64,000 nt of DNA, from contig OZ024940.1 in NCBI GenBank assembly GCA_964017235.1, positions 30,436,573 through 30,500,572 on the forward strand, written 5' to 3'. Source of the stretch: Sabellastarte sp. h YS-2021. Its lineage: Eukaryota > Annelida > Polychaeta > Sabellida > Sabellidae. The position numbers and the translations under genes were made by a program. The notes under the pieces are model-generated. The model was not told where the DNA came from and did not search any database. It saw only the letters and a program-made list of their open reading frames with translations. Of the stretch, positions 1 through 64,000 are shown piece by piece (within the stretch, counting starts at the first letter, position 1; each line of letters opens with the position of its first letter).

Positions 1-272
1 TGCTGAAATTTGGCCAGAAAATAAGGTGGCATATACTAAATCTGACTGAACCGGTTTTAAAATTACATCTGATATAACAGTACTTATAGTTTGGCAATAC
101 TGGCTTCAGCTGGCCCTAAATTCGCTTCTGTGGGGCTGCATTAAGATATACTTAAATTTGGTAAAGTAAGACAAATTTAAGGCTGAAAACCATATTGTTT
201 GCTAGAGCTTGCGCCACTAAATGAGATTCCACAAGAATATTCCTTAAGAAATACATAACTGGTCCAAAATAC
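1..272 (+). repeat. Partial monomer, tail of an E-type copy
   Basis: The window opens inside a monomer. The segment carries the E-type markers gccagaaaataagg, caatactggcttc and tttggtaaagtaag, the same as the tails of the E copies that start at 2999, 5044 and 8452. It also has private changes: ggcatatac, ggccctaaattcg and gagcttgcgcc. It is followed by an A-type monomer, as expected for the pentamer order. Confidence 0.9.
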
Positions 273-3200
273 ATGTATTGGAAGTGCAGGTATCAAGGGG
301 GTGATCATATGGCACATCAGTCCAAAACCCCACTTAAACTTCATCAATCTGGCTCAGATTTTCACAGAAAACTCAGTTCATATCTGACATTGATATTGTA
401 TTGGCTTGACTTACTCAGGAAACCAATTAAAAATTTCAATTTTCCGGGGTTTGGGGCCAGGCTCAGCCCCCCTCAAATTAGGAAATATCAGGTATATCCT
501 AATACAACCAATCTGAAGCTCTTCTTTAATTTTGCATATGTTTTAACAATAATTGAGGATATATTAGGCCCATTTGGAGCACTACATCTCTGAAAATAAA
601 TTATTTCACCCATATATTGCTGTAAAAATAGCCAAAAATACATGTAAATTACACCAAACCAGTACCAAATGTTGGTCTATAATGCTGAAATTTGGCCAGA
701 ATATAAGGTGGCACATACTAAATCTGACTGAACCGGTTTTAAAATTACATCTGATATAACAGTATTATAGTTTGGCAATATTGGCTTCAGCTGGCCCCAA
801 ATTCGATTCTGTGGGGCTGCATTAAGATATACTTAAATTTGGCAAAGTAAGACAAATTTAAGGCTGAAAACCATATTGTTTGCTAGAGCTGGCGCCACTA
901 AATGAGATTCCACAAGAATATTCCTTAAGAAATACATAACTGGTCCAAAATACATGTATTGGAAGTGCAGGTATCGAGGGGGTGATCATATGGCACATCA
1001 GTCCAAAACCCCACTTAAACTTCATCAATCTGGCTCAGATTTTCACAGAAAACTCAGTTCATATCTGACATTGATATTGTATTGGCTTGACTTACTCAGG
1101 AAACCAATTAAAAATTTCAATTTTCCGGGGTTTGGGGCCAGGCTCAGCCCCCCTCAAATTAGGAAATATCAGGTATATCCTAATACAACCAATCTGAAGC
1201 TCTTCTTTAATTTTGCATATGTTTTAACAATAATTGAGGATATATTAGGCCCATTTGGAGCATTACATCTCTGAAAATAAATTATTTCACCCATATATTG
1301 CTGTAAAAATAGCCAAAAATACATGTAAATTACACCAAACCAGTACCAAATGTTGGTCTATAATGCTGAAATTTGGCCAGAATATAAGGTGGCCCATACT
1401 AAATCTGACTGAACCGGTTTTAAAATTACATCTGATATAACAGTACTTATAGTTTGGCAATATTGGCTTCAGCTGGCCCCAAATTCGCTTCTGTGGGGCT
1501 GCATTAGGATATACTTAAATTTGGCAAAGTAAGACAAATTTAAGGCTGAAAACCATATTGTTTGCTAGAGCTGGCGCCACTAAATGAGATTCCACAAGAA
1601 TATTCCTTAAGAAATACATAACTGGTCCAAAATACATGTATTGGAAGTGCAGGTATCGAGGGGGTGATCATATGGTACATCAGTCCAAAACCCCACTTAA
1701 ACTTCATCAATCTGGCTCAGATTTTCACAGGAAACTCAGTTCATATCTGACATTGATATTGTATTGGCTTGAGTACTCAGGAAACCAATTAAAAATTTCA
1801 ATTTTCCGGGGTTTGGGGCCAGGCTCAGCCCCCCTCAAATTAGGAAATATCAGGTATATCCTAATACAACCAATCTGAAGCTCTTCTTTAATTTTGCATA
1901 TGTTTTAACAATAATTGAGGATATATTAGGCCCATTTGGAGCATTACATCTCTGAAAATAAATTATTTCACCCATATATTGCTGTAAAAATGGCCAAAAA
2001 TACATGTAAATTACACCAAACCAGTACCAAATGTTGGTCTATAATGCTGAAATTTGGCCAGAATATAAGGTGGCACATACTAAATCTGACTGAACCGGTT
2101 TTAAAATTACATCTGATATAACAGTACTTATAGTTTGGCAATATTGGCTTCAGCTGGCCCCAAATTCGCTTCTGTGGGGCTGCATTAGGATATACTTAAA
2201 TTTGGCAAAGTAAGACAAATTTAAGCCTGAAAACCATATTGTTTGCTAGAGCTGGCGCCACTAAATGAGATTCCACAAGAATATTCCTTAAGAAATACAT
2301 AACTGGTCCAAAATACATGTATTGGAAGTGCAGGTATCGAGGGGGTGATCATATGGCACATCAGTCCAAAACCCCACTTAAACTTAATCAATCTGGCTCA
2401 GATTTTCACAGGAAACTCAGTTCATATCTGACATTGATATTGTATTGGCTTGACTTACTCAGGAAACCAATTAAAAATTTCAATTTTCCGGGGCTTGGGG
2501 CCAGGCTCAGCCCCCCTCAAATTACGAAATATCAGGTATATCCTAATACAACCAATCTGAAGCTCTTCTTTAATTTTGCATATGTTTTAACAATAATTGA
2601 GGATATATTAGGCCCATTTGGAGCATTACATCTCTGAAAATAAAATATTTCACCCATATATTGCTGTAAAAATGGCCAAAAATACATGTAAATTACACCA
2701 AACCAGTACCAAATGTTGGTCTATAATGCTGAAATTTGGCCAGAATATAAGGTGGCACATACTAAATCTGACTGAACCGGTTTTAAAATTACATCTGATA
2801 TAACAGTACTTATAGTTTGGCAATATTGGCTTCAGCTGGCCCCAAATTCGCTTCTGTGGGGCTGCATTAAGATATACTTAAATTTGGCAAAGTAAGACAA
2901 ATTTAAGGCTGAAAACCATATTGTTTGCTAGAGCTGGCGCCACTAAATGAGATTCCACAAGAATATTCCTTAAGAAATACATAACTGGTCCAAAATACAT
3001 GTATTGGAAGTGCAGGTATCAAGGGGGTGATCATATGGCACATCAGTCCAAAACCCCGCTTAAACTTCATCAATCTGGCTCAGATTTTCACAGGAAACTG
3101 AGTTCATATCTGACATTGATATTGTATTGGCTTGACTTACTCGGGGAAACCAATTAAAAATTTCAATTTTCCGGGGTTTGGGGCCAGGCTCAGCCCCCCT

Positions 3201-3680
3201 CAAATTAGGAAATATCAGGTATATCCTAATACAACCAATCTGAAGCTCTTCTTTAATTTTGCATATGTTTTAACAATAATTGAGGATATATTAGGCCCAT
3301 TTGGAGCATTACATCTCTGAAAATAAATTATTTCACCCATATATTGCTGTAAAATGGCCAAAAGTACGTGTAAATTACACCAAACCAGTACCAAATGTTG
3401 GTCTATAATGCTGAAATTTGGCCAGAAAATAAGGTGGCACATACTAAATCTGACTGAACCGGTTTTAAAATTACATCTGATATAACAGTACTTATAGTTT
3501 GGCAATACTGGCTTCAGCTGGCCCCAAATTCGCTTCTGTGGGGCTGCATTAAGATATACTTAAATTTGGTAAAGTAAGACAAATTTAAGGCTGAAAACCA
3601 TATTGTTTGCTAGAGCTGGCGCCACTAAATGAGATTCCACAAGAATATTCCTTAAGAAATACATAACTGGTCCAAAATAC
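273..3680 (+). repeat. Pentameric HOR copy 1 (A-B-C-D-E, 3408 bp)
   Basis: Monomers start at 273 (A), 954 (B), 1636 (C), 2317 (D) and 2999 (E). A is marked by gtatcaaggggg, cacagaaaactc and cagtattatag, the last a one-base deletion. C has atggtacatcag and cttgagtactcagg, also minus one base. D has cttaatcaatctgg, ccggggcttgg and attacgaaat. E has accccgctt, aaactgagttc, cttactcggggaaacc (plus one base) and ccaaaagtacgtg. Lengths are 681, 682, 681, 682 and 682. The same ordered set returns at 5726, so the unit is a higher-order repeat and not a random mix of variants. Confidence 0.93.
954..1635 (+). repeat. Representative 682-bp monomer (type B) and its anatomy
   Basis: This copy is close to the apparent consensus. 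It has few CpG sites: TATCGAGG, TTCCGGGG, AACCGGTT, ATTCGCTT and GGCGCC. It carries three inverted repeats: GGGGC/GCCCC around an 8-base loop (1134-1151), ATTAGGA/TCCTAAT (1158-1184), and TGGCCCCA/TGGGGCTG with two wobble pairs (1474-1501). The word CCAAAATACATGTA occurs just before and at the landmark (945-958), and a one-base-longer version recurs at 1313-1327. I see no convincing internal subrepeat beyond that. Plus-strand open frames of 106 and 61 codons overlap here but are not supported as genes, because other copies shift or stop them and neither has recognisable domains. Confidence 0.9.
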
Positions 3681-5725
3681 ATGTATTGGAAGTGCAGGTA
3701 TCAAGGGGGTGATCATATGGCACATCAGTCCAAAACCCCACTTAAACTTCATCAATCTGGCTCAGATTTTCACAGAAAACTCAGTTCATATCTGACATTG
3801 ATATTGTATTGGCTTGACTTACTCAGGAAACCAATTAAAAATTTCAATTTTCCGGGGTTTGGGGCCAGGCTCAGCCCCCCTCAAATTAGGAAATATCAGG
3901 TATATCCTAATACAACCAATCTGAAGCTCTTCTTTAATTTTGCATATGTTTTAACAATAATTGAGGATATATTAGGCCCATTTGGAGCACTACATCTCTG
4001 AAAATAAATTATTTCACCCATATATTGCTGTAAAAATAGCCAAAAATACATGTAAATTACACCAAACCAGTACCAAATGTTGGTCTATAATGCTGAAATT
4101 TGGCCAGAATATAAGGTGGCACATACTAAATCTGACTGAACCGGTTTTAAAATTACATCTGATATAACAGTATTATAGTTTGGCAATATTGGCTTCAGCT
4201 GGCCCCAAATTCGCTTCTGTGGGGCTGCATTAGGATATACTTAAATTTGGCAAAGTAAGACAAATTTAAGCCTGAAAACCATATTGTTTGCTAGAGCTGG
4301 CGCCACTAAATGAGATTCCACAAGAATATTCCTTAAGAAATACATAACTGGTCCAAAATACATGTATTGGAAGTGCAGGTATCGAGGGGGTGATCATATG
4401 GCACATCAGTCCAAAACCCCACTTAAACTTAATCAATCTGGCTCAGATTTTCACAGGAAACTCAGTTCATATCTGACATTGATATTGTATTGGCTTGACT
4501 TACTCAGGAAACCAATTAAAAATTTCAATTTTCCGGGGCTTGGGGCCAGGCTCAGCCCCCCTCAAATTACGAAATATCAGGTATATCCTAATACAACCAA
4601 TCTGAAGCTCTTCTTTAATTTTGCATATGTTTTAACAATAATTGAGGATATATTAGGCCCATTTGGAGCATTACATCTCTGAAAATAAAATATTTCACCC
4701 ATATATTGCTGTAAAAATGGCCAAAAATACATGTAAATTACACCAAACCAGTACCAAATGTTGGTCTATAATGCTGAAATTTGGCCAGAATATAAGGTGG
4801 CACATACTAAATCTGACTGAACCGGTTTTAAAATTACATCTGATATAACAGTACTTATAGTTTGGCAATATTGGCTTCAGCTGGCCCCAAATTCGCTTCT
4901 GTGGGGCTGCATTAAGATATACTTAAATTTGGCAAAGTAAGACAAATTTAAGGCTGAAAACCATATTGTTTGCTAGAGCTGGCGCCACTAAATGAGATTC
5001 CACAAGAATATTCCTTAAGAAATACATAACTGGTCCAAAATACATGTATTGGAAGTGCAGGTATCAAGGGGGTGATCATATGGCACATCAGTCCAAAACC
5101 CCGCTTAAACTTCATCAATCTGGCTCAGATTTTCACAGGAAACTGAGTTCATATCTGACATTGATATTGTATTGGCTTGACTTACTCGGGGAAACCAATT
5201 AAAAATTTCAATTTTCCGGGGTTTGGGGCCAGGCTCAGCCCCCCTCAAATTAGGAAATATCAGGTATATCCTAATACAACCAATCTGAAGCTCTTCTTTA
5301 ATTTTGCATATGTTTTAACAATAATTGAGGATATATTAGGCCCATTTGGAGCATTACATCTCTGAAAATAAATTATTTCACCCATATATTGCTGTAAAAT
5401 GGCCAAAAGTACGTGTAAATTACACCAAACCAGTACCAAATGTTGGTCTATAATGCTGAAATTTGGCCAGAAAATAAGGTGGCACATACTAAATCTGACT
5501 GAACCGGTTTTAAAATTACATCTGATATAACAGTACTTATAGTTTGGCAATACTGGCTTCAGCTGGCCCCAAATTCGCTTCTGTGGGGCTGCATTAAGAT
5601 ATACTTAAATTTGGTAAAGTAAGACAAATTTAAGGCTGAAAACCATATTGTTTGCTAGAGCTGGCGCCACTAAATGAGATTCCACAAGAATATTCCTTAA
5701 GAAATACATAACTGGTCCAAAATAC
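3681..5725 (+). repeat. Shortened HOR copy (A-D-E, B and C missing)
   Basis: Monomers start at 3681 (A), 4362 (D) and 5044 (E). The A copy keeps its own marker cagtattatag, ending at 4178. The linker that follows is already D-upstream type: cttctgtgg at 4214 where A normally has gattctg, then attaggata and taagcctg. The switch from A to C/D sequence therefore lies between 4178 and 4214. Loss of two whole monomers in register is the expected product of unequal exchange between neighbouring repeats. Confidence 0.92.
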
Positions 5726-8700
5726 ATGTATTGGAAGTGCAGGTATCAAGGGGGTGATCATATGGCACATCAGTCCAAAACCCCACTTAAACTTCATCAA
5801 TCTGGCTCAGATTTTCACAGAAAACTCAGTTCATATCTGACATTGATATTGTATTGGCTTGACTTACTCAGGAAACCAATTAAAAATTTCAATTTTCCGG
5901 GGTTTGGGGCCAGGCTCAGCCCCCCTCAAATTAGGAAATATCAGGTATATCCTAATACAACCAATCTGAAGCTCTTCTTTAATTTTGCATATGTTTTAAC
6001 AATAATTGAGGATATATTAGGCCCATTTGGAGCACTACATCTCTGAAAATAAATTATTTCACCCATATATTGCTGTAAAAATAGCCAAAAATACATGTAA
6101 ATTACACCAAACCAGTACCAAATGTTGGTCTATAATGCTGAAATTTGGCCAGAATATAAGGTGGCACATACTAAATCTGACTGAACCGGTTTTAAAATTA
6201 CATCTGATATAACAGTATTATAGTTTGGCAATATTGGCTTCAGCTGGCCCCAAATTCGATTCTGTGGGGCTGCATTAAGATATACTTAAATTTGGCAAAG
6301 TAAGACAAATTTAAGGCTGAAAACCATATTGTTTGCTAGAGCTGGCGCCACTAAATGAGATTCCACAAGAATATTCCTTAAGAAATACATAACTGGTCCA
6401 AAATACATGTATTGGAAGTGCAGGTATCGAGGGGGTGATCATATGGCACATCAGTCCAAAACCCCACTTAAACTTCATCAATCTGGCTCAGATTTTCACA
6501 GAAAACTCAGTTCATATCTGTCATTGATATTGTATTGGCTTGACTTACTCAGGAAACCAATTAAAAATTTCAATTTTCCGGGGTTTGGGGCCAGGCTCAG
6601 CCCCCCTCAAATTAGGAAATATCAGGTATATCCTAATACAACCAATCTGAAGCTCTTCTTTAATTTTGCATATGTTTTAACAATAATTGAGGATATATTA
6701 GGCCCATTTGGAGCATTACATCTCTGAAAATAAATTATTTCACCCATATATTGCTGTAAAAATAGCCAAAAATACATGTAAATTACACCAAACCAGTACC
6801 AAATGTTGGTCTATAATGCTGAAATTTGGCCAGAATATAAGGTGGCCCATACTAAATCTGACTGAACCGGTTTTAAAATTACATCTGATATAACAGTACT
6901 TATAGTTTGGCAATATTGGCTTCAGCTGGCCCCAAATTCGCTTCTGTGGGGCTGCATTAGGATATACTTAAATTTGGCAAAGTAAGACAAATTTAAGGCT
7001 GAAAACCATATTGTTTGCTAGAGCTGGCGCCACTAAATGAGATTCCACAAGAATATTCCTTAAGAAATACATAACTGGTCCAAAATACATGTATTGGAAG
7101 TGCAGGTATCGAGGGGGTGATCATATGGTACATCAGTCCAAAACCCCACTTAAACTTCATCAATCTGGCTCAGATTTTCACAGGAAACTCAGTTCATATC
7201 TGACATTGATATTGTATTGGCTTGAGTACTCAGGAAACCAATTAAAAATTTCAATTTTCCGGGGTTTGGGGCCAGGCTCAGCCCCCCTCAAATTAGGAAA
7301 TATCAGGTATATCCTAATACAACCAATCTGAAGCTCTTCTTTAATTTTGCATATGTTTTAACAATAATTGAGGATATATTAGGCCCATTTGGAGCATTAC
7401 ATCTCTGAAAATAAATTATTTCACCCATATATTGCTGTAAAAATGGCCAAAAATACATGTAAATTACACCAAACCAGTACCAAATGTTGGTCTATAATGC
7501 TGAAATTTGGCCAGAATATAAGGTGGCACATACTAAATCTGACTGAACCGGTTTTAAAATTACATCTGATATAACAGTACTTATAGTTTGGCAATATTGG
7601 CTTCAGCTGGCCCCAAATTCGCTTCTGTGGGGCTGCATTAGGATATACTTAAATTTGGCAAAGTAAGACAAATTTAAGCCTGAAAACCATATTGTTTGCT
7701 AGAGCTGGCGCCACTAAATGAGATTCCACAAGAATATTCCTTAAGAAATACATAACTGGTCCAAAATACATGTATTGGAAGTGCAGGTATCGAGGGGGTG
7801 ATCATATGGCACATCAGTCCAAAACCCCACTTAAACTTAATCAATCTGGCTCAGATTTTCACAGGAAACTCAGTTCATATCTGACATTGATATTGTATTG
7901 GCTTGACTTACTCAGGAAACCAATTAAAAATTTCAATTTTCCGGGGCTTGGGGCCAGGCTCAGCCCCCCTCAAATTACGAAATATCAGGTATATCCTAAT
8001 ACAACCAATCTGAAGCTCTTCTTTAATTTTGCATATGTTTTAACAATAATTGAGGATATATTAGGCCCATTTGGAGCATTACATCTCTGAAAATAAAATA
8101 TTTCACCCATATATTGCTGTAAAAATGGCCAAAAATACATGTAAATTACACCAAACCAGTACCAAATGTTGGTCTATAATGCTGAAATTTGGCCAGAATA
8201 TAAGGTGGCACATACTAAATCTGACTGAACCGGTTTTAAAATTACATCTGATATAACAGTACTTATAGTTTGGCAATATTGGCTTCAGCTGGCCCCAAAT
8301 TCGCTTCTGTGGGGCTGCATTAAGATATACTTAAATTTGGCAAAGTAAGACAAATTTAAGGCTGAAAACCATATTGTTTGCTAGAGCTGGCGCCACTAAA
8401 TGAGATTCCACAAGAATATTCCTTAAGAAATACATAACTGGTCCAAAATACATGTATTGGAAGTGCAGGTATCAAGGGGGTGATCATATGGCACATCAGT
8501 CCAAAACCCCGCTTAAACTTCATCAATCTGGCTCAGATTTTCACAGGAAACTGAGTTCATATCTGACATTGATATTGTATTGGCTTGACTTACTCGGGGA
8601 AACCAATTAAAAATTTCAATTTTCCGGGGTTTGGGGCCAGGCTCAGCCCCCCTCAAATTAGGAAATATCAGGTATATCCTAATACAACCAATCTGAAGCT

Positions 8701-9133
8701 CTTCTTTAATTTTGCATATGTTTTAACAATAATTGAGGATATATTAGGCCCATTTGGAGCATTACATCTCTGAAAATAAATTATTTCACCCATATATTGC
8801 TGTAAAATGGCCAAAAGTACGTGTAAATTACACCAAACCAGTACCAAATGTTGGTCTATAATGCTGAAATTTGGCCAGAAAATAAGGTGGCACATACTAA
8901 ATCTGACTGAACCGGTTTTAAAATTACATCTGATATAACAGTACTTATAGTTTGGCAATACTGGCTTCAGCTGGCCCCAAATTCGCTTCTGTGGGGCTGC
9001 ATTAAGATATACTTAAATTTGGTAAAGTAAGACAAATTTAAGGCTGAAAACCATATTGTTTGCTAGAGCTGGCGCCACTAAATGAGATTCCACAAGAATA
9101 TTCCTTAAGAAATACATAACTGGTCCAAAATAC
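5726..9133 (+). repeat. Pentameric HOR copy 3 (A-B-C-D-E)
   Basis: Starts are 5726, 6407, 7089, 7770 and 8452. All type markers of the first pentamer are present in the same order and the length is the same 3408 bp. The B monomer differs from the first copy by tatctgtcattg in place of tatctgacattg, a variant shared with the next B at 9815. Copies 3 and 4 are therefore closer to each other than to copy 1. Confidence 0.93.
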
Positions 9134-11859
9134 ATGTATTGGAAGTGCAGGTATCAAGGGGGTGATCATATGGCACATCAGTCCAAAACCCCACTTAAAC
9201 TTCATCAATCTGGCTCAGATTTTCACAGAAAACTCAGTTCATATCTGACATTGATATTGTATTGGCTTGACTTACTCAGGAAACCAATTAAAAATTTCAA
9301 TTTTCCGGGGTTTGGGGCCAGGCTCAGCCCCCCTCAAATTAGGAAATATCAGGTATATCCTAATACAACCAATCTGAAGCTCTTCTTTAATTTTGCATAT
9401 GTTTTAACAATAATTGAGGATATATTAGGCCCATTTGGAGCACTACATCTCTGAAAATAAATTATTTCACCCATATATTGCTGTAAAAATAGCCAAAAAT
9501 ACATGTAAATTACACCAAACCAGTACCAAATGTTGGTCTATAATGCTGAAATTTGGCCAGAATATAAGGTGGCACATACTAAATCTGACTGAACCGGTTT
9601 TAAAATTACATCTGATATAACAGTATTATAGTTTGGCAATATTGGCTTCAGCTGGCCCCAAATTCGATTCTGTGGGGCTGCATTAAGATATACTTAAATT
9701 TGGCAAAGTAAGACAAATTTAAGGCTGAAAACCATATTGTTTGCTAGAGCTGGCGCCACTAAATGAGATTCCACAAGAATATTCCTTAAGAAATACATAA
9801 CTGGTCCAAAATACATGTATTGGAAGTGCAGGTATCGAGGGGGTGATCATATGGCACATCAGTCCAAAACCCCACTTAAACTTCATCAATCTGGCTCAGA
9901 TTTTCACAGAAAACTCAGTTCATATCTGTCATTGATATTGTATTGGCTTGACTTACTCAGGAAACCAATTAAAAATTTCAATTTTCCGGGGTTTGGGGCC
10001 AGGCTCAGCCCCCCTCAAATTAGGAAATATCAGGTATATCCTAATACAACCAATCTGAAGCTCTTCTTTAATTTTGCATATGTTTTAACAATAATTGAGG
10101 ATATATTAGGCCCATTTGGAGCATTACATCTCTGAAAATAAATTATTTCACCCATATATTGCTGTAAAAATAGCCAAAAATACATGTAAATTACACCAAA
10201 CCAGTACCAAATGTTGGTCTATAATGCTGAAATTTGGCCAGAATATAAGGTGGCCCATACTAAATCTGACTGAACCGGTTTTAAAATTACATCTGATATA
10301 ACAGTACTTATAGTTTGGCAATATTGGCTTCAGCTGGCCCCAAATTCGCTTCTGTGGGGCTGCATTAGGATATACTTAAATTTGGCAAAGTAAGACAAAT
10401 TTAAGGCTGAAAACCATATTGTTTGCTAGAGCTGGCGCCACTAAATGAGATTCCACAAGAATATTCCTTAAGAAATACATAACTGGTCCAAAATACATGT
10501 ATTGGAAGTGCAGGTATCGAGGGGGTGATCATATGGTACATCAGTCCAAAACCCCACTTAAACTTCATCAATCTGGCTCAGATTTTCACAGGAAACTCAG
10601 TTCATATCTGACATTGATATTGTATTGGCTTGAGTACTCAGGAAACCAATTAAAAATTTCAATTTTCCGGGGTTTGGGGCCAGGCTCAGCCCCCCTCAAA
10701 TTAGGAAATATCAGGTATATCCTAATACAACCAATCTGAAGCTCTTCTTTAATTTTGCATATGTTTTAACAATAATTGAGGATATATTAGGCCCATTTGG
10801 AGCATTACATCTCTGAAAATAAATTATTTCACCCATATATTGCTGTAAAAATGGCCAAAAATACATGTAAATTACACCAAACCAGTACCAAATGTTGGTC
10901 TATAATGCTGAAATTTGGCCAGAATATAAGGTGGCACATACTAAATCTGACTGAACCGGTTTTAAAATTACATCTGATATAACAGTACTTATAGTTTGGC
11001 AATATTGGCTTCAGCTGGCCCCAAATTCGCTTCTGTGGGGCTGCATTAGGATATACTTAAATTTGGCAAAGTAAGACAAATTTAAGCCTGAAAACCATAT
11101 TGTTTGCTAGAGCTGGCGCCACTAAATGAGATTCCACAAGAATATTCCTTAAGAAATACATAACTGGTCCAAAATACATGTATTGGAAGTGCAGGTATCG
11201 AGGGGGTGATCATATGGCACATCAGTCCAAAACCCCACTTAAACTTAATCAATCTGGCTCAGATTTTCACAGGAAACTCAGTTCATATCTGACATTGATA
11301 TTGTATTGGCTTGACTTACTCAGGAAACCAATTAAAAATTTCAATTTTCCGGGGCTTGGGGCCAGGCTCAGCCCCCCTCAAATTACGAAATATCAGGTAT
11401 ATCCTAATACAACCAATCTGAAGCTCTTCTTTAATTTTGCATATGTTTTAACAATAATTGAGGATATATTAGGCCCATTTGGAGCATTACATCTCTGAAA
11501 ATAAAATATTTCACCCATATATTGCTGTAAAAATGGCCAAAAATACATGTAAATTACACCAAACCAGTACCAAATGTTGGTCTATAATGCTGAAATTTGG
11601 CCAGAATATAAGGTGGCACATACTAAATCTGACTGAACCGGTTTTAAAATTACATCTGATATAACAGTACTTATAGTTTGGCAATATTGGCTTCAGCTGG
11701 CCCCAAATTCGCTTCTGTGGGGCTGCATTAAGATATACTTAAATTTGGCAAAGTAAGACAAATTTAAGGCTGAAAACCATATTGTTTGCTAGAGCTGGCG
11801 CCACTAAATGAGATTTCACAAGAATATTCCTTAAGAAATACATAACTGGTCCAAAATAC
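9134..11859 (+). repeat. Terminal HOR copy (A-B-C-D, no E)
   Basis: Starts are 9134 (A), 9815 (B, with the ctgtcattg variant), 10497 (C) and 11178 (D). The expected E monomer is replaced by a different subtype at 11860, preceded by gagatttcacaag at about 11811. The pentamer domain ends at this boundary, so this is where one homogenisation domain gives way to the next. Confidence 0.9.
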
Positions 11860-27541: not shown

Positions 27542-30500
27542 ATGTATTGGAAGTGCAGGTATCGAGGGGGTGATCATATGGCACATCAGTCCAAAACCCC
27601 ACTTAAACTTCATCAATCTGGCTCAGATTTTCACAGGAAACTCAGTTCATATCTGACATTGATATTGTATTGGCTTGACTTACTCAGGAAACCAATTAAA
27701 AATTTCAATTTTCCGGGGTTTGGGGCCAGGCTCAGCCCCCCTCAAATTAGGAAATATCAGGTATATCCTAATACAACCAATCTGAAGCTCTTCTTTAATT
27801 TTGCATATGTTTTAACAATAATTGAGGATATATTAGGCCCATTTGGAGCATTACATCTCTGAAAATAAATTATTTCACCCATATATTGCTGTAAAAATGG
27901 CCAAAAATACATGTAAATTACACCAAACCAGTACCAAATGTTGGTCTATAATGCTGAAATTTGGCCACAATATAAGGTGGCACATACTAAATCTGACTGA
28001 ACCGGTTTCAAAATTACATCTGATATAACAGTACTTATAGTTTGGTAATATTAATTGGCTTCAGCTGGCCCCAAATTCGCTTCTGTGGGGCTGCATTAGG
28101 ATATACTTAAATTTGGCAAAGTAAGACAAATTTAAGGCTGGAAACCATATTGTTTGCTAGAGCTGGCGCCACTAAATGAGATTCCACAAGAATATTCCTT
28201 AAGAAATACATAACTGGTCCAAAATACATGTATTGGAAGTGCAGGTATCGAGGGGGTGATCATATGGCACATCAGTCCAAAACCCCACTTAAACTTCATC
28301 AATCTGGCTCAGATTTTCACAGGAAACTCAGTTCATATCTGACATTGATATTGTATTGGCTTGACTTACTCAGGAAACCAATTAAAAATTTCAATTTTCC
28401 GGGGTTTGGGGCCAGGCTCAGCCCCCCTCAAATTAGGAAATATCAGGTATATCCTAATACAACCAATCTGAAGCTCTTCTTTAATTTTGCATATGTTTTA
28501 ACAATAATTGAGGATATATTAGTCCCATTTGGAGCATTACATCTCTGAAAATAAATTATTTCACCCATATATTGCTGTAAAAATGGCCAAAAATACATGT
28601 AAATTACACCAAACCAGTACCAAATGTTGGTCTATAATGCTGAAATTTGGCCAGAATATAAGGTGGCACATACTAAATCTGACTGAACCGGTTTTAAAAT
28701 TACATCTGATATAACAGTACTTATAGTTTGGCAATATTGGCTTCAGCTGGCCCCAAATTCGCTTCTGTGGGGCTGCATTAAGATATACTTAAATTTGGCA
28801 AAGTAAGACAAATTTAAGGCTGGAAACCATATTGTTTGCTAGAGCTGGCGCCACTAAATGAGATTCCACAAGAATATTCCTTAAGAAATACATAACTGGT
28901 CCAAAATACATGTATTGGAAGTGCAGGTATCGAGGGGGTGATCATATGGCACATCAGTCCAAAACCCCACTTAAACTTCATCAATCTGGCTCAGATTTTC
29001 ACAGGAAACTCGGTTCATATCTGACATTGATATTGTATTGGCTTGACTTACTCAGGAAACCAATTAAAAATTTCAATTTTCCGGGATTTGGGGCCAGGCT
29101 CAGCCCCCCTCAAATTAGGAAATATCAGGTATATCCTAATACAACCAATCTGAAGCTCTTCTTTAATTTTGCATATGTTTTAACAATAATTGAGGATATA
29201 TTAGGCCCATTTGGAGCATTACATCTCTGAAAATAAATTACTTCACCCATATATTGCTGTAAAAATGGCCAAAAATACATGTAAATTACACCAAACCAGT
29301 ACCAAATGTTGGTCTATAATGCTGAAATTTGGCCAGAATATAAGGTGGCACATACTAAATCTGACTGAACCGGTTTTAAAATTACATCTGATATAACAGT
29401 ACTTATAGTTTGGCAATATTGGCTTCAGCTGGCCCCAAATTCGCTTCTGTGGGGCTGCATTAAGATATACTTAAATTTGGCAAAGTAAGACAAATTTAAG
29501 GCTGAAAACCATATTGTTTGCTAGAGCTGGCGCCACTAAATGAGATTCCACAAGAATATTCCTTAAGAAATACATAACTGGTCCAAAATACATGTATTGG
29601 AAGTGCAGGTATCGAGGGGGTGATCATATGGCACATCAGTCCAAAACCCCACTTAAACTTCATCAATCTGGCTCAGATTTTCACAGGAAACTCAGTTCAT
29701 ATCTGACATTGATATTGTATTGGCTTGACTTACTCAGGAAACCAATTAAAAATTTCAATTTTCCGGGGTTTGGGGCCAGGCTCAGCCCCCCTCAAATTAG
29801 GAAATATCAGGTATATCCTAATACAACCAATCTGAAGCTCTTCTTTAATTTTGCATATGTTTTAACAATAATTGAGGATATATTAGTCCCATTTGGAGCA
29901 TTACATCTCTGAAAATAAATTATTTCACCCATATATTGCTGTAAAAATGGCCAAAAATACATGTAAATTACACCAAACCAGTACCAAATGTTGGTCTATA
30001 ATGCTGAAATTTGGCCAGAATATAAGGTGGCACATACTAAATCTGACTGAACCGGTTTTAAAATTACATCTGATATAACAGTACTTATAGTTTGGCAATA
30101 TTGGCTTCAGCTGGCCCCAAATTCGCTTCTGTGGGGCTGCATTAAGATATACTTAAATTTGGCAAAGTAAGACAAATTTAAGGCTGGAAACCATATTGTT
30201 TGCTAGAGCTGGCGCCACTAAATGAGATTCCACAAGAATATTCCTTAAGAAATACATAACTGGTCCAAAATACATGTATTGGAAGTGCAGGTATCGAGGG
30301 GGTGATCATATGGCACATCAGTCCAAAACCCCACTTAAACTTCATCAATCTGGCTCAGATTTTCACAGGAAACTCGGTTCATATCTGACATTGATATTGT
30401 ATTGGCTTGACTTACTCAGGAAACCAATTAAAAATTTCAATTTTCCGGGATTTGGGGCCAGGCTCAGCCCCCCTCAAATTAGGAAATATCAGGTATATCC

Positions 30501-33500: not shown

Positions 33501-34373
33501 ATAGTTTGGTAATATTAATTGGCTTCAGCTGGCCCCAAATTCGCTTCTGTGGGGCTGCATTAGGATATACTTAAATTTGGCAAAGTAAGACAAATTTAAG
33601 GCTGGAAACCATATTGTTTGCTAGAGCTGGCGCCACTAAATGAGATTCCACAAGAATATTCCTTAAGAAATACATAACTGGTCCAAAATACATGTATTGG
33701 AAGTGCAGGTATCGAGGGGGTGATCATATGGCACATCAGTCCAAAACCCCACTTAAACTTCATCAATCTGGCTCAGATTTTCACAGGAAACTCAGTTCAT
33801 ATCTGACATTGATATTGTATTGGCTTGACTTACTCAGGAAACCAATTAAAAATTTCAATTTTCCGGGGTTTGGGGCCAGGCTCAGCCCCCCTCAAATTAG
33901 GAAATATCAGGTATATCCTAATACAACCAATCTGAAGCTCTTCTTTAATTTTGCATATGTTTTAACAATAATTGAGGATATATTAGGCCCATTTGGAGCA
34001 TTACATCTCTGAAAATAAATTATTTCACCCATATATTGCTGTAAAAATGGCCAAAAATACATGTAAATTACACCAAACCAGTACCAAATGTTGGTCTATA
34101 ATGCTGACATTTGGCCAGAATATAAGGTGGCACATACTAAATCTGACTGAACCGGTTTTAAAATTACATCTGATATAACAGTACTTATAGTTTGGCAATA
34201 TTGGCTTCAGCTGGCCCCAAATTCGCTTCTGTGGGGCTGCATTAGGATATACTTAAATTTGGCAAAGTAAGACAAATTTAAGGCTGAAAACCATATTGTT
34301 TGCTAGAGCTGGCGCCACTAAATGAGATTCCACAAGAATATTCCTTAAGAAATACATAACTGGTCCAAAATAC
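27542..34373 (+). repeat. Mixed dimer/trimer HOR marked by a 4-bp AATT insertion
   Basis: Starts are 27542, 28228, 28910, 29592, 30274, 30956, 31642, 32324, 33006 and 33692. The three 686-bp monomers (27542, 30956, 33006) carry tttggtaatattaattggc in place of tttggcaatattggc, together with ggccacaatataagg and accggtttcaaaa. Copies at 28228, 29592 and 30956 have attagtcccattt. Copies at 28910, 30274 and 32324 have actcggttcat, ccgggatttgg and aaattacttc. The pairs 28228-29591 and 29592-30955 are nearly identical dimers; 30956-33005 is a trimer. Confidence 0.9.
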
Positions 34374-55886: not shown

Positions 55887-57663
55887 CACCAAACCAGTAC
55901 CAAATGTTGGTCTATAATGCTGAAATTTGGCCAGAATATAAGGTGGCATATACTAAATCTGACTGAACCGGTTTTAAAATTACATCTGATATAACAGTAC
56001 TTATAGTTTGGCAATATTGGCTTCAGCTGGCCCCAAATTCGCTTCTGTGGGGCTGCATTAGGATATACTTAAATTTGGCAAAGTAAGACAAATTTAAGGC
56101 TGAAAACCATATTGTTTGCTAGAGCTGGCGCCACTAAATGAGATTCCACAAGAATATTCCTTAAGAAATACATAACTGGTCCAAAATACATGTATTGGAA
56201 GTGCAGGTATCGAGGGGGTGATCATATGGCACATCAGTCCAAAACCCCACTTAAACTTAATCAATCTGGCTCAGATTTTCACAGGAAACTCAGTTCATAT
56301 CTGACATTGATATTGTATTGGCTTGACTTACTCAGGAAACCAATTAAAAATTTCAATTTTCCGGGGTTTGGGGCCAGGCTCAGCCCCCCTCAAATTAGGA
56401 AATATCAGGTATATCCTAATACAACCAATCTGAAGCTCTTCTTTAATTTTGCATATGTTTTAACAATAATTGAGGATATATTAGGCCCATTTGGAGCATT
56501 ACATCTCTGAAAATAAATTATTTCACCCATATATTGCTGTAAAAATGGCCAAAAATACATGTAAATTACACCAAACCAGTACCAAATGTTGGTCTATAAT
56601 ACTGAAATTTGGCCAGAATATAAGGTGGCCCATACTAAATCTGACTGAACCGGTTTTAAAATTACATCTGATATAACAGTACTTATAGTTTGGCAATATT
56701 GGCTTCAGCTGGCCCCGAATTCGCTTCTGTGGGGCTGCATTAGGATATACTTAAATTTGGCAAAGTAAGACAAATTTAAGGCTGAAAACCATATTGTTTG
56801 CTAGAGCTGGCGCCACTAAATGAGATTACACAAGAATATTCCTTAAGAAATACATAACTGGTCCAAAATACATGTATTGGAAGTGCAGGTATCGAGGGGG
56901 TGATCATATGGCACATCAGTCCAAAACCCCACTTAAACTTCATCAATCTGGCTCAGATTTTCACAGGAAACTCAGTTCATATCTGACATTGATATTGTAT
57001 TGGCTTGACTTACTCAGGAAACCAATTAAAAATTTCAATTTTCCGGGGTTTGGGGCCAGGCTCAGCCCCCCTCAAATTAGGAAATATCAGGTATATCCTA
57101 ATACAACCAATCTGAAGCTCTTCTTTAATTTTGCATATGTTTTAACAATAATTGAGGATATATTAGGCCCATTTGGAGCATTACATCTCTGAAAATAAAT
57201 TATTTCACCCATATATTGCTGTAAAGATGGCCAAAAATACATGTAAATTACACCAAACCAGTACCAAATGTTGGTCTATAATGCTGAAATTTGGCCAGAA
57301 TATAAGGTGGCACATACTAAATCTGACTGAACCGGTTTTAAAATTACATCTGATATAACAGTACTTATAGTTTGGCAATATTGGCTTCAGCTGGCCCCAA
57401 ATTCGCTTCTGTGGGGCTGCCTTAGGATATACTTAAATTTGGCAAAGTAAGACAAATTTAAGCCTGAAAACCATATTGTTTGCTAGAGCTGGCGCCACTA
57501 AATGAGATTCCACAAGAATATTCCTTAAGAAATACATAACTGGTCCAAAATACATGTATTGGAAGTGCAGGTATCGAGGGGGTGATCATATGGCACATCA
57601 GTCCAAAACCCCACTTAAACTTCATCAATCTGGCTCAGATTTTCACAGGAAACTCAGTTCATA
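55887..57663 (+). repeat. Out-of-phase tandem duplication, first copy (1777 bp)
   Basis: The segment runs from the middle of the monomer at 55508 to base 110 of the monomer at 57554. Its private markers recur exactly 1777 bp later: ggtggcatatac at about 55942, ataatactgaaa at about 56598, ggccccgaattcg at about 56712, gagattacac at about 56822 and gctgccttagg at about 57417. The length is about 2.6 monomers, so the copying was not in register with the repeat. By eye it differs from the second copy at two sites: cttaatcaa versus cttcatcaa, and taaagatgg versus taaaaatgg. Confidence 0.9.
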
Positions 57664-59440
57664 CACCAAACCAGTACCAAATGTTGGTCTATAATGCTGA
57701 AATTTGGCCAGAATATAAGGTGGCATATACTAAATCTGACTGAACCGGTTTTAAAATTACATCTGATATAACAGTACTTATAGTTTGGCAATATTGGCTT
57801 CAGCTGGCCCCAAATTCGCTTCTGTGGGGCTGCATTAGGATATACTTAAATTTGGCAAAGTAAGACAAATTTAAGGCTGAAAACCATATTGTTTGCTAGA
57901 GCTGGCGCCACTAAATGAGATTCCACAAGAATATTCCTTAAGAAATACATAACTGGTCCAAAATACATGTATTGGAAGTGCAGGTATCGAGGGGGTGATC
58001 ATATGGCACATCAGTCCAAAACCCCACTTAAACTTCATCAATCTGGCTCAGATTTTCACAGGAAACTCAGTTCATATCTGACATTGATATTGTATTGGCT
58101 TGACTTACTCAGGAAACCAATTAAAAATTTCAATTTTCCGGGGTTTGGGGCCAGGCTCAGCCCCCCTCAAATTAGGAAATATCAGGTATATCCTAATACA
58201 ACCAATCTGAAGCTCTTCTTTAATTTTGCATATGTTTTAACAATAATTGAGGATATATTAGGCCCATTTGGAGCATTACATCTCTGAAAATAAATTATTT
58301 CACCCATATATTGCTGTAAAAATGGCCAAAAATACATGTAAATTACACCAAACCAGTACCAAATGTTGGTCTATAATACTGAAATTTGGCCAGAATATAA
58401 GGTGGCCCATACTAAATCTGACTGAACCGGTTTTAAAATTACATCTGATATAACAGTACTTATAGTTTGGCAATATTGGCTTCAGCTGGCCCCGAATTCG
58501 CTTCTGTGGGGCTGCATTAGGATATACTTAAATTTGGCAAAGTAAGACAAATTTAAGGCTGAAAACCATATTGTTTGCTAGAGCTGGCGCCACTAAATGA
58601 GATTACACAAGAATATTCCTTAAGAAATACATAACTGGTCCAAAATACATGTATTGGAAGTGCAGGTATCGAGGGGGTGATCATATGGCACATCAGTCCA
58701 AAACCCCACTTAAACTTCATCAATCTGGCTCAGATTTTCACAGGAAACTCAGTTCATATCTGACATTGATATTGTATTGGCTTGACTTACTCAGGAAACC
58801 AATTAAAAATTTCAATTTTCCGGGGTTTGGGGCCAGGCTCAGCCCCCCTCAAATTAGGAAATATCAGGTATATCCTAATACAACCAATCTGAAGCTCTTC
58901 TTTAATTTTGCATATGTTTTAACAATAATTGAGGATATATTAGGCCCATTTGGAGCATTACATCTCTGAAAATAAATTATTTCACCCATATATTGCTGTA
59001 AAAATGGCCAAAAATACATGTAAATTACACCAAACCAGTACCAAATGTTGGTCTATAATGCTGAAATTTGGCCAGAATATAAGGTGGCACATACTAAATC
59101 TGACTGAACCGGTTTTAAAATTACATCTGATATAACAGTACTTATAGTTTGGCAATATTGGCTTCAGCTGGCCCCAAATTCGCTTCTGTGGGGCTGCCTT
59201 AGGATATACTTAAATTTGGCAAAGTAAGACAAATTTAAGCCTGAAAACCATATTGTTTGCTAGAGCTGGCGCCACTAAATGAGATTCCACAAGAATATTC
59301 CTTAAGAAATACATAACTGGTCCAAAATACATGTATTGGAAGTGCAGGTATCGAGGGGGTGATCATATGGCACATCAGTCCAAAACCCCACTTAAACTTC
59401 ATCAATCTGGCTCAGATTTTCACAGGAAACTCAGTTCATA
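57664..59440 (+). repeat. Out-of-phase tandem duplication, second copy (1777 bp)
   Basis: The junction reads cagttcatacaccaaacc. The left part is monomer positions around cagttcata and the right part is positions around ttacaccaaacc, so 269 bp of a monomer are absent between landmarks 57554 and 57967. The two parents share only TA at the breakpoint. After the second copy the array continues normally at 59441 inside the monomer starting 59331. A three-monomer duplication followed by a 269-bp deletion would give the same sequence. Confidence 0.9.
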
Positions 59441-62400
59441 TCTGACATTGATATTGTATTGACTTGACTTACTCAGGAAACCAATTAAAAATTTCAATTT
59501 TCCGGGGTTTGGGGCCAGGCTCAGCCCCCCTCAAATTAGGAAATATCAGGTATATCCTAATACAACCAATCTGAAGCTCTTCTTTAATTTTGCATATGTT
59601 TTAACAATAATTGAGGATATATTAGGCCCATTTGGAGCATTACATCTCTGAAAATAAATTATTTCACCCATATATTGCTGTAAAAATGGCCAAAAATACA
59701 TGTAAATTACACCAAACCAGTACCAAATGTTGGTCTATAATGCTGAAATTTGGCCAGAATATAAGGTGGCACATACTAAATCTGACTGAACCGGTTTTAA
59801 AATTACATCTGATATAACAGTACTTATAGTTTGGCAATATTGGCTTAAGCTGGCCCCAAATTCGCTTCTGTGGGGCTGCATTAGGATATACTTAAATTTG
59901 GCAAAGTAAGACAAATTTAAGGCTGAAAACCATATTGTTTGCTAGAGCTGGCGCCACTAAATGAGATTCCACAAGAATATTCCTTAAGAAATACATAACT
60001 GGTCCAAAATACATGTATTGGAAGTGCAGGTATCGAGGGGGTGATCATATGGCACATCAGTCCAAAACCCCACTTAAACTTAATCAATCTGGCTCAGATT
60101 TTCACAGGAAACTCAGTTCATATCTGACATTGATATTGTATTGGCTTGACTTACTCAGGAAACCAATTAAAAATTTCAATTTTCCGGGGTTTGGGGCCAG
60201 GCTCAGCCCCCCTCAAATTAGGAAATATCAGGTATATCCTAATACAACCAATCTGAAGCTCTTCTTTAATTTTGCATATGTTTTAACAATAATTGAGGAT
60301 ATATTAGGCCCATTTGGAGCATTACATCTCTGAAAATAAATTATTTCACCCATATATTGCTGTAAAAATGGCCAAAAATACATGTAAATTACACCAAACC
60401 AGTACCAAATGTTGGTCTATAATGCTGAAATTTGGCCAGAATATAAGGTGGCACATACTAAATCTGACTGAACCGGTTTTAAAATTACATCTGATATAAC
60501 AGTACTTATAGTTTGGCAATATTGGCTTCAGCTGGCCCCAAATTCGCTTCTGTAGGGCTGCATTAGGATATACTTAAATTTGGCAAAGTAAGACAAATTT
60601 AAGCCTGAAAACCATATTGTTTGCTAGAGCAGGCGCCACTAAATGAGATTCCACAAGAATATTCCTTAAGAAATACATAACTGGTCCAAAATACATGTAT
60701 TGGAAGTGCAGGTATCGAGGGGGTGATCATATGGCACATCAGTCCAAAACCCCACTTAAACTTAATCAATCTGGCTCAGATTTTCACAGGAAACTCAGTT
60801 CATATCTGACATTGATATTGTATTGGCTTGACTTACTCAGGAAACCAATTAAAAATTTCAATTTTCCGGGGTTTGGGGCCAGGCTCAGCCCCCCTCAAAT
60901 TAGGAAATATCAGGTATATCCTAATACAACCAATCTGAAGCTCTTCTTTAATTTTGCATATGTTTTAACAATAATTGAGGATATATTAGGCCCATTTGGA
61001 ACATTACATCTCTGAAAATAAATTATTTCACCCATATATTGCTGTAAAAATGGCCAAAATACATGTAAATTACACCAAACCAGTACCAAATGTTGGTCTA
61101 TAATGCTGAAATTTGGCCAGAAGATAAGGTGGCACATACTAAATCTGACTGAACCGGTTTTAAAATTACATCTGATATAACAGTACTTATAGTTTGGCAA
61201 TATTGGCTTCAGCTGGCCCCAAATTCGCTTCTGTGGGGCTGCATTAGGATATACTTAAATTTGGCAAAGTAAGACAAATTTAAGGCTGAAAACCATATTG
61301 TTTGCTAGAGCTGGCGCCACTAAATGAGATTCCACAAGAATATTCCTTAAGAAATACATAACTGGTCCAAAATACATGTATTGGAAGTGCAGGTATCGAG
61401 GGGGTGATCATATGGCACATCAGTCCAAAACCCCACTTAAACTTCATCAATCTGGCTCAGATTTTCACAGGAAACTCAGTTCATATCTGACATTGATATT
61501 GTATTGGCTTGACTTACTCAGGAAACCAATTAAAAATTTCAATTTTCCGGGGTTTGGGGCCAGGCTCAGCCCCCCTCAAATTAGGAAATATCAGGTATAT
61601 CCTAATACAACCAATCTGAAGCTCTTCTTTAATTTTGCATATGTTTTAACAATAATTGAGGATATATTAGGCCCATTTGGAACATTACATCTCTGAAAAT
61701 AAATTATTTCACCCATATATTGCTGTAAAAATGGCCAAAATACATGTAAATTACACCAAACCAGTACCAAATGTTGGTCTATAATGCTGAAATTTGGCCA
61801 GAAGATAAGGTGGCACATACTAAATCTGACTGAACCGGTTTTAAAATTACATCTGATATAACAGTACTTATAGTTTGGCAATATTGGCTTCAGCTGGCCC
61901 CAAATTCGCTTCTGTGGGGCTGCATTAGGATATACTTAAATTTGGCAAAGTAAGACAAATTTAAGGCTGAAAACCATATTGTTTGCTAGAGCTGGCGCCA
62001 CTAAATGAGATTCCACAAGAATATTCCTTAAGAAATACATAACTGGTCCAAAATACATGTATTGGAAGTGCAGGTATCGAGGGGGTGATCATATGGCACA
62101 TCAGTCCAAAACCCCACTTAAACTTCATCAATCTGGCTCAGATTTTCACAGGAAACTCAGTTCATATCTGACATTGATATTGTATTGGCTTGACTTACTC
62201 AGGAAACCAATTAAAAATTTCAATTTTCCGGGGTTTGGGGCCAGGCTCAGCCCCCCTCAAATTAGGAAATATCAGGTATATCCTAATACAACCAATCTAA
62301 GGCTCTTCTTTAATTTTGCATATGTTTTAACAATAATTGAGGATATATTAGGCCCATTTGGAGCATTACATCTCTGAAAATAAATTATTTCACCCATATA

Positions 62401-62738
62401 TTGCTGTAAAAATGGCCAAAAATACATGTAATTTACACCAAACCAGTACCAAGTGTTGGTCTATAATGCTGAAATTTGGCCAGAATATAAGGTGGCACAT
62501 ACTAAATCTGACTGAACCGGTTTTAAAATTACATCTGATATAACAGTACTTATAGTTTGGCAATATTGGCTTCAGCTCCCCCCAAATTCGCTTCTGTGGG
62601 GCTGCATTAAGATATACTTAAATTTGGCAAAGTAAGACAAATTTAAGGCTGAAAACCATATTGTTTGCTAGAGCTGGCGCCACTAAATGAGATTCCACAA
62701 GAATATTCCTTAAGAAATACATAACTGGTCCAAAATAC
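59441..62738 (+). repeat. Monomers after the duplication
   Basis: This covers the rest of the monomer at 59331 and those at 60013, 60695, 61376 and 62057. The linker after the first has ggcttaagctgg. The copies at 60013 and 60695 have cttaatcaatctgg, those at 60695 and 61376 are T-type, and 62057 has caatctaaggctc. Private changes become more frequent toward the right: tctgtagggctg, gagcaggcgcc, gtaatttacacc, ccaagtgttgg and cagctcccccc. Confidence 0.85.
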
Positions 62739-63127
62739 ATGTATTGGAAGTGCAGGTATCGAGGGGGTGATCATATGGCACATCAGTCCAAAACCCCACT
62801 TAAACTTCATCCATCTGGCTCAGATTTTCAAAGGAAACTCAGTTCATATCTGACATTGATATTGTATTGGCTTGACTTACTCAGGAAACCAATTAAAATT
62901 TCAATTTTCCGGGGTTTGGGGCCAGGCTCAGGCCCCCTCAAATTAGGAAATATCAGGTATATCCTAATACAACCAATCTGAAGCTCTTCTTTAATTTTGC
63001 ATATGTTTTAACAATAATTGAGGATATATTAGGCCCATTTGGAGCATTACATCTCTGAAAATAAATTATTTCACCCATATATTGCTGTAAAAATGGCCAA
63101 AAGTACATGTAAATTACACCAAACCAG

Positions 63128-63135
63128 TACCAAAT
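63128..63135. repeat. Left target-site duplication TACCAAAT
   Basis: The 8 bases match the satellite and abut the insertion. The same 8 bases occur at the other edge, after which the satellite resumes in register. An 8-bp duplication is typical of hAT, P and Merlin-like DNA transposons, but that family assignment is only an inference here. Confidence 0.8.
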
Positions 63136-63144
63136 TTAGCGGGA

Positions 63145-63175
63145 ACCAGCCACCTTTAACAATAAAGGGACTGGT
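63145..63175. other. 5' hairpin of the insertion
   Basis: ACCAG (63145-63149) pairs with CTGGT (63171-63175). Inside it CCTTTA (63153-63158) pairs with TAAAGG (63163-63168) around an ACAA loop. The two stems are separated by a small internal loop. The structure starts 9 bases from the left edge. Confidence 0.7.
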
Positions 63176-63470
63176 ATCGGCCACGATGGCCTTGACATAC
63201 ATCATTGCTAGCCATCATTATCGGGAAATCTCGATCATTATTTTAATTGCTTATATGCATTTTGTATGTATTTACAACATTTTAAACATTTATTATTGAA
63301 ATTATAACATCAAATATTGTGAATTAAACTTTAAAATATTTTGAAATGACAATAATGTTTAGAAGCAAATACATGTTTGGGTGATAATAGAAGATCGACA
63401 GCACTTAAACTGGTTCACGTTTTTAGTTAGGGAAGTACGGAAGCGTAGTACCCAAGATGGTGGGCGATAC

Positions 63471-63498
63471 CCGACCCTATATTGCAGAGTAGGGTCGG
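63471..63498. other. Subterminal hairpin of the insertion
   Basis: CCGACCCTA (63471-63479) is perfectly complementary in inverted order to TAGGGTCGG (63490-63498), with a 10-base loop. It lies 14 bases from the right edge of the insertion. It may be structural DNA for transposition or part of a folded transcript; the sequence alone does not say which. Confidence 0.8.
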
Positions 63499-63512
63499 CG
63501 GAAACCAGACTA

Positions 63513-63520
63513 TACCAAAT
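63513..63520. repeat. Right target-site duplication TACCAAAT
   Basis: This is the second copy of the 8-bp flank, immediately followed by gttggtctataatgctg of the interrupted monomer. Upstream the bases aaaccagacta resemble the satellite aaaccag plus ACTA, so a longer imperfect duplication of 15 bases is an alternative reading. Confidence 0.8.
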
Positions 63521-63804
63521 GTTGGTCTATAATGCTGAAATTTGGCCAGAATATAAGGTGGCACATACTAAATCTGACTGAACCGGTTTTAAAATTACAT
63601 CTGATATAACAGTACTTATAGTTTGGCAATATTGGCTTCAGCTGGCCCCAAATTCGCTTCTGTGGGGCTGCATTAAGATATACTTAAATTTGGCAAAGTA
63701 AGACAAATTTAAGGCTGAAAACCATATTGTTTGCTAGAGCTGGCGCCACTAAATGAGATTCCACAAGAATATTCCTTAAGAAATACATAACTGGTCCAAA
63801 ATAC

Positions 63805-64000
63805 ATGTATTGGAAGTGCAGGTATCGAGGGGGTGATCATATGGCACATCAGTCCAAAACCCCACTTAAACTTCATCCATCTGGCTCAGATTTTCAAAGG
63901 AAACTCAGTTCATATCTGACATTGATATTGTATTGGCTTGACTTACTCAGGAAACCAATTAAAATTTCAATTTTCCGGGGTTTGGGGCCAGGCTCAGGCC
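63805..64000 (+). repeat. Monomer 94, truncated by the window end
   Basis: The satellite continues with atgtattggaagtgcagg and carries the same private variants as the interrupted monomer: cttcatccatctgg, ttttcaaagg, attaaaatttcaat and ggctcaggcc. The position equivalent to the insertion site would lie about 200 bases beyond the window. Confidence 0.95.

What the first reader, a model, noticed from the sequence alone, without database searches (positions are those of the whole stretch)
1..64000. Very large, nearly pure satellite array with a 682-bp monomer and higher-order structure
About 94 monomers run in one orientation with a single foreign insertion. Long homogeneous arrays with multi-monomer HORs are best known from centromeres. 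I do not recognise this family, so it is a candidate major centromeric or heterochromatic satellite of its species. The monomer length is close to four times about 170 bp, which would fit four nucleosomes, but that is inference.
Basis: partly seen in the sequence, partly recalled or inferred. Interest (0 to 1): 0.7.

Follow-up and report, generated by a model that had tools for sequence, protein, structure and literature searches.

The report
Homogeneous 682-bp satellite DNA array
The whole stretch is one non-coding 682-letter DNA unit repeated head to tail about 94 times, an ordinary kind of satellite DNA from an unidentified, probably eukaryotic genome, whose link to the centromere is possible but untested.

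Summary
The window is 94 head-to-tail units of one 682-bp sequence on one strand: 91 intact, one shortened to 413 bp, one split by a 377-bp insert, one cut by the window end. Intact units are 98.6% identical on average. The insert lies between two copies of TACCAAAT, a likely target-site duplication.

Higher-order structure is real but local. Units 1-17 follow a five-type order, A-B-C-D-E. One chimeric unit (B start, D end) stands in for B, C and D in a three-unit version, as unequal exchange would leave. Elsewhere there are short alternations. Alpha-satellite-type HORs with strongly diverged monomers are absent.

The four-nucleosome idea finds no clear support.

No coding or RNA-family match appeared in the parts scanned, and no relative in the collections searched. 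Dfam, Repbase and nt were not available and the genome search did not complete, so species, abundance and chromosomal position are unknown. Verdict: new member of a known kind; centromere role untested.

The parts
1..64000 (+). head-to-tail array of a 682-bp monomer, 94 units, runs off both ends of the window
1..11587 (+). units 1-17: five-type higher-order pattern A-B-C-D-E (about 3408 bp), with one three-unit version
   Evidence: variant map; collinear runs at lags 5, 8, 13 and 3
4091..4771 (+). unit 7, chimera: carries the type-B deletion at alignment column 83 and equals a type-D unit at every other column
   Evidence: the deletion is in units 2, 7, 10 and 15 only
57282..57694 (+). unit 85, internally deleted to 413 bp (about 269 bases missing after position 381)
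63136..63512 (.). 377-bp foreign insert, transposon-like, no coding match in the frames tried
63128..63135 (+). left copy of TACCAAAT, probable target-site duplication
63513..63520 (+). right copy of TACCAAAT, probable target-site duplication

Best explanation
This is part of a non-coding satellite DNA array, most likely in heterochromatin of a eukaryote whose CpG sites are methylated. It is kept uniform by unequal exchange or conversion between neighbouring units. Shown: uniformity, closer similarity of nearby units, duplicated runs of 2-6 units, a chimeric unit, a deletion and one insertion. Inferred: that exchange between misaligned copies (rather than replication slippage or rolling-circle reinsertion) made these patterns, that the location is heterochromatic, and that the array has no sequence-specific job beyond what long arrays do.
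For: Pairwise identity 98.63% over 91 intact units. Mean differences are 8.37 at lag 1 and 9.76-10.13 at lags 26-36. The 17 variants held by exactly two units sit a median of 3 units apart, against 27 for random pairs. Unit 7 has the type-B marker at column 83 and matches type D (unit 12) at every other column; it lies between A and E, where B, C and D would be. Of 42 units (of 91) that differ from every other unit by at least 2, 9 are fully explained by one crossover between two other units; with the order of columns permuted, which keeps linkage but not position, the mean is 2.85 and the highest of 100 is 7. No Pfam match in the 5 translations tried, no Rfam match in 56500-64000, no tRNA in the window. 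CpG in the consensus is at 0.22 of expectation while TG and CA are in excess.
Against: Nothing here shows chromosome location, abundance or chromatin state, so 'heterochromatin' is inference. The decay with distance is not steady: the mean falls again to 9.12-9.81 at lags 38-59. The B side of the chimera rests on one 1-bp marker plus its position. 33 of the 42 units with no near copy are not explained by one crossover within the window. The methylation reading rests on CpG depletion alone.
Confidence: 0.75

Rival explanations
1. The array is a working centromere satellite on which CENP-A chromatin forms, and its uniformity and local higher-order order reflect centromeric turnover.
For: Long, nearly pure array with one insertion in 64 kb; local multi-unit order; A/T-dinucleotide signal at 10-11 bp in the unit (7 of 2000 dinucleotide shuffles reach it in that band; similar tests on unit 2).
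Against: The same features occur in pericentromeric, subtelomeric and interstitial satellites (general knowledge). Over all periods, 126 of 2000 shuffles reach that power. Best CENP-B core match is 7 of 9 positions, with no shuffle control. No excess of self-folding in the one unit folded: z -0.85, 5 of 20 shuffles fold as well.
Confidence: 0.3
2. The unit was captured from a transposable element, for example the tandem core of a Helitron-like element, and then amplified.
For: In the oyster Crassostrea angulata 51 satellites are reported as similar to RepBase repeats, 61 satellites being detected (passage of PMC11136912), so such origins are common in some animals.
Against: No coding match in the 5 translations tried; insert and monomer are no more alike than shuffles. 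Repbase and Dfam were not available, so non-coding transposon parts are untested.
Confidence: 0.12
3. The array is partly an assembly artefact: unit number or order is wrong.
For: Near-identical units are hard to assemble; 30 of 94 units have an exact copy elsewhere in the window.
Against: 76 distinct sequences among 94 units, a graded variant order along the array and a single deletion and insertion suggest a real path. An artefact of order would not change the finding that it is a satellite. No reads were available.
Confidence: 0.05
4. The repeat is a spacer or RNA-gene cluster (rDNA spacer, 5S, snRNA or tRNA array).
For: Such clusters also have uniform units of several hundred bases (general knowledge).
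Against: No Rfam match at gathering scores in 56500-64000 or up to E 1 in 62400-64000, stretches that hold whole units; no tRNA in the window. A spacer without its gene is not excluded by these scans.
Confidence: 0.03

Closest known systems
Alpha-satellite higher-order repeats of primates
   Same: head-to-tail units with a repeating multi-unit order; five-unit HORs exist on human chromosomes 1, 11, 17 and X (PMC8122249 passage)
   Different: units here are 682 bp and 98.6% alike, against 171 bp (PMC4053949 passage) and about 70% alike within an HOR; the order is clear over 17 of 94 units only
Long-monomer satellites such as the 1,419-bp cattle centromere repeat (PMC4053949 passage)
   Same: a unit well above nucleosome size
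   Different: sequence not compared; no centromere evidence here
Oyster satellitomes (PMC11136912 passages)
   Same: a wide range of monomer lengths, 28-8637 bp in Crassostrea angulata, so 682 bp is unremarkable
   Different: sequences not compared; the host here is unknown

Membership tests
satellite DNA | long head-to-tail array of one unit | tested here: met
   94 units over 64 kb, running off both ends
satellite DNA | units homogenised within the array | tested here: met
   98.63% mean pairwise identity, 91 intact units of 94
satellite DNA | non-coding | tested here: met
   no Pfam match for the 5 translations tried, no Rfam match in the parts scanned, no tRNA; transcription not testable
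satellite DNA | abundant in the genome, heterochromatic | not testable with these tools
   The genome search unanswered in all 13 tries (last); no cytology
higher-order repeat array | multimers much more alike than their member monomers | tested here: met
   only in units 1-17: 0-1 differences in the collinear runs five or eight units apart against 11 between types B and D; not seen array-wide
alpha-satellite-type HOR | strongly diverged monomers inside each HOR | tested here: not met
   the most different pair of intact units differs at 20 alignment columns
centromeric satellite | CENP-A/CENH3 binding at primary constrictions | not testable with these tools
   no ChIP or FISH data
centromeric satellite with CENP-B boxes | all nine core bases of the box | tested here: not met
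   best site in the consensus has 7 of 9; the nine-base core pattern was recalled; many centromeres lack the box
four-nucleosome unit | internal period near 170 bp | tested here: not met
   autocorrelation at 160-185 bp is 0.238-0.304 against a mean of 0.267, sd 0.017; the highest, 163 bp, is about 2 sd up but below four other lags; GC harmonic 4 is reached by 13% of 3000 shuffles. Nucleosome positions themselves need MNase data

The most novel reading that the evidence does not exclude
The 682-bp unit is the main centromere satellite of its species, young and freshly expanded, with a five-unit order caught in the act of being shortened by unequal exchange, so the array would record how higher-order repeats arise from nearly identical long units.
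Probability: 0.2. Interest if true: 0.4.

Novelty: new member of a known kind. Interest (0 to 1): 0.18.

Why it matters
Uncatalogued satellite families are expected in most species (general knowledge), so the family itself is unsurprising. The useful part is the readable variant map: a five-unit order, a three-unit derivative and the chimeric unit joining them, a compact example of how exchange between neighbours can create and trim higher-order repeats. If it proved centromeric it would give a probe and a map for that species.

Tried and rejected
Gene content: five translations (three frames of the monomer, one across the left edge of the insert, one from the insert across its right edge) had no Pfam match up to E 1. 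RNA families: none at gathering scores in 56500-64000 or up to E 1 in 62400-64000. tRNAs: none in the window.

Relatives elsewhere: two exact monomer patterns of 24 and 26 bases gave 0 matches in genome contigs; two monomer patterns and one insert pattern gave 0 in viral contigs; blastn of unit 2 gave none in plasmids or phages. These collections hold prokaryote, plasmid and virus DNA and may leave out the window's own genome, so their silence says little about a eukaryotic satellite.

Literature: six sequence strings occur in 0 held papers; '682 bp' with 'satellite DNA' in 0; none of the 20 papers listed, of 1,963, held '682-bp' or '682bp'. One search listed 6 papers holding '682' with molluscs and satellite DNA; the passages show that in none of the 6 is it a monomer length (a mutation count; a read count; part of reference numbers; a decimal in a table). 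Searches gave listings used only to choose papers. Of PMC4053949, PMC8122249, PMC11136912 and PMC7290008 I read passages only.

Internal sub-repeats: the best off-diagonal self-match of the consensus is reached by 12 of 60 shuffles. Terminal inverted repeats of the insert: best self-complement score 38 against a top of 36 in 200 shuffles, but in the AT-rich middle; 28-nt arms, 82% complementary, lie inside the ends. I did not assign a transposon superfamily. A hunch that the TACATGTA motifs look molluscan is recalled and untested.

Full report
What is there. Comparing the window with itself gives its best match at a shift of 682 bp. One unit, used as a BLAST query, matches the plus strand across the window. 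I cut 94 units: 91 intact (65 of 682 bp, 22 of 681, 3 of 686, 1 of 683), unit 85 shortened to 413 bp, unit 93 interrupted, unit 94 cut by the window end. For counts of variation I dropped units 85, 93 and 94, leaving 91 of 94. The array runs off both ends, so its true length is unknown. G+C is even, 35.9-37.4% in 2-kb steps.

Uniformity. The 91 units differ from each other at 9.34 alignment columns on average (98.63% identity), 20 at most. They hold 152 minority alleles, 68 of them in one unit only: 71 transitions, 68 transversions and 13 indels. Variant sites are spread along the unit: the longest invariant run, 26 bases, is no longer than random placement gives (median 23, 95th percentile 33). 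So no stretch stands out as a conserved binding site.

Higher-order order. Printing the 64 columns at which at least three units depart from the majority shows five recurring types at the left end. Units 1-17 read A B C D E, then A (chimera) E, then A B C D E, then A B C D. In the collinear runs five, eight, thirteen or three units apart, copies differ by 0 or 1; unit 1 differs from unit 6 by 3. Units 10 (B) and 12 (D) differ at 11 columns. Unit 7 carries the B deletion at column 83, found only in units 2, 7, 10 and 15, and equals unit 12 at every other column. It stands between A and E, where B, C and D would be. Misaligned exchange between a B and a D, with the crossover between columns 83 and 129, gives exactly this. 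The weak point is that the B side rests on a single marker.

The rest of the array. Beyond unit 17 there are shorter alternations, such as units 43/45/48 with 44/46/49 and 42/47/50. Nearby units are more alike: neighbours differ at 8.37 columns, units 26-36 apart at 9.76-10.13, but the mean falls again to 9.12-9.81 at lags 38-59, so the decay is not steady. The neighbour value and the lag-5 value (7.84) are below the lowest of 1000 permutations of unit order.

Exchange inside units. Of the 91 units, 42 differ by at least two from every other unit. One crossover between two other units explains 9 of these 42 fully, and lowers the difference by at least 2 in 18 of 91. As a control I permuted the order of columns, the same for all units, 100 times: the first count averaged 2.85 (highest 7), the second 9.3 (highest 13), so neither was reached. 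This supports exchange or conversion with breakpoints inside units; 33 of the 42 remain unexplained by one crossover, as expected if parents lie outside the window or mutations followed.

The insert. Bases 63136-63512 (377 bp) are foreign. TACCAAAT stands on both sides, and the ordinary unit has it once there, so it is a probable 8-bp target-site duplication. Rejoining the flanks in a script gives a unit of 681 bp with 11 differences from unit 2. The insert is no more like the monomer than shuffles are. It looks like a short non-autonomous transposon, but its ends are not clear inverted repeats and I assign no family.

Nucleosomes. Circular autocorrelation at 160-185 bp runs from 0.238 to 0.304 against a mean of 0.267 with sd 0.017; its highest value, at 163 bp, is about two sd above the mean, and four other lags are higher. 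The 170.5-bp GC harmonic is reached by 13% of 3000 shuffles and the 85-bp harmonic by 1.4%, one of 12 looked at. In a 147-bp sliding window, the strongest 10.2-bp signal recurs at starts 2, 150, 311, 492 and 673, spacings of 148-181 bp, but the peak-picking itself forces peaks apart by 60 bp or more and I ran no control for it. A/T dinucleotides have a peak at 10.8 bp that 7 of 2000 shuffles reach in the 9.7-10.8 bp band, but 126 of 2000 reach it somewhere in the spectrum. Tests on unit 2 with 1000 dinucleotide shuffles gave 0 for all four A/T dinucleotides, 0.6% and 2.9% for narrower sets and 0.5% for G/C dinucleotides; lag-10 autocorrelation is reached by 0.1%, yet the highest of all lags by 9% of 150. 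So a rotational (10-11 bp) signal is likely enough to be worth testing; four phased nucleosomes are not shown.

Function tests. The best CENP-B core match in the consensus is 7 of 9, without a shuffle control. A single-strand fold of unit 10 is no more stable than shuffles (z -0.85, 5 of 20 as good). CpG is at 0.22 of expectation, with TG and CA at 1.23 and 1.27, as in methylated genomes. No Pfam match in five translations, no Rfam match in the parts scanned and no tRNA.

Relatives and host. The collections that answered gave no match, but they hold prokaryote, plasmid and virus DNA. The genome search did not complete (13 tries, last). The host is therefore unknown; that it is a eukaryote is inferred from the array and the CpG depletion.

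Verdict. The satellite reading is right; higher-order structure is local; the centromere reading is open; the four-nucleosome reading is unsupported. Passages of PMC4053949 report HORs in 76 of 171 species with Sanger data and candidate centromere monomers from 92 bp (soybean) to 1,419 bp (cattle), so nothing here is outside the known range. I rate it a new member of a known kind, with the chimeric unit and the crossover excess as the instructive details.

Noticed in passing
57282-57694: One unit lost about 269 bases internally (413 bp left), the only large internal deletion seen among the 94 units.
   Followed up: partly
63136-63512: 377-bp insert between two TACCAAAT copies, with 28-nt arms 82% complementary inside its ends and near-direct repeats GCGGGAACCAG / GCGGAAACCAG close to both ends.
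   Followed up: partly
units 42, 47 and 50 (27952-28637, 31366-32051, 33416-34101): The same 4-base insertion and four shared substitutions mark three units placed 5 and 3 units apart, another local multi-unit pattern.
   Followed up: partly
60013-60333, 60695-61015, 61376-61696, 62057-62377: An open frame of 106 codons recurs in four units of the scanned right end; no Pfam match for the one tested, probably just the uniform repeat.
   Followed up: partly
consensus unit, whole array: Only 5 CpG sites in the consensus unit, and just one of them varies among the 91 intact units.
   Followed up: no
consensus unit: A/T and G/C dinucleotides show a 10-11 bp periodicity stronger than most shuffles, as nucleosome-favouring DNA can.
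   Followed up: partly
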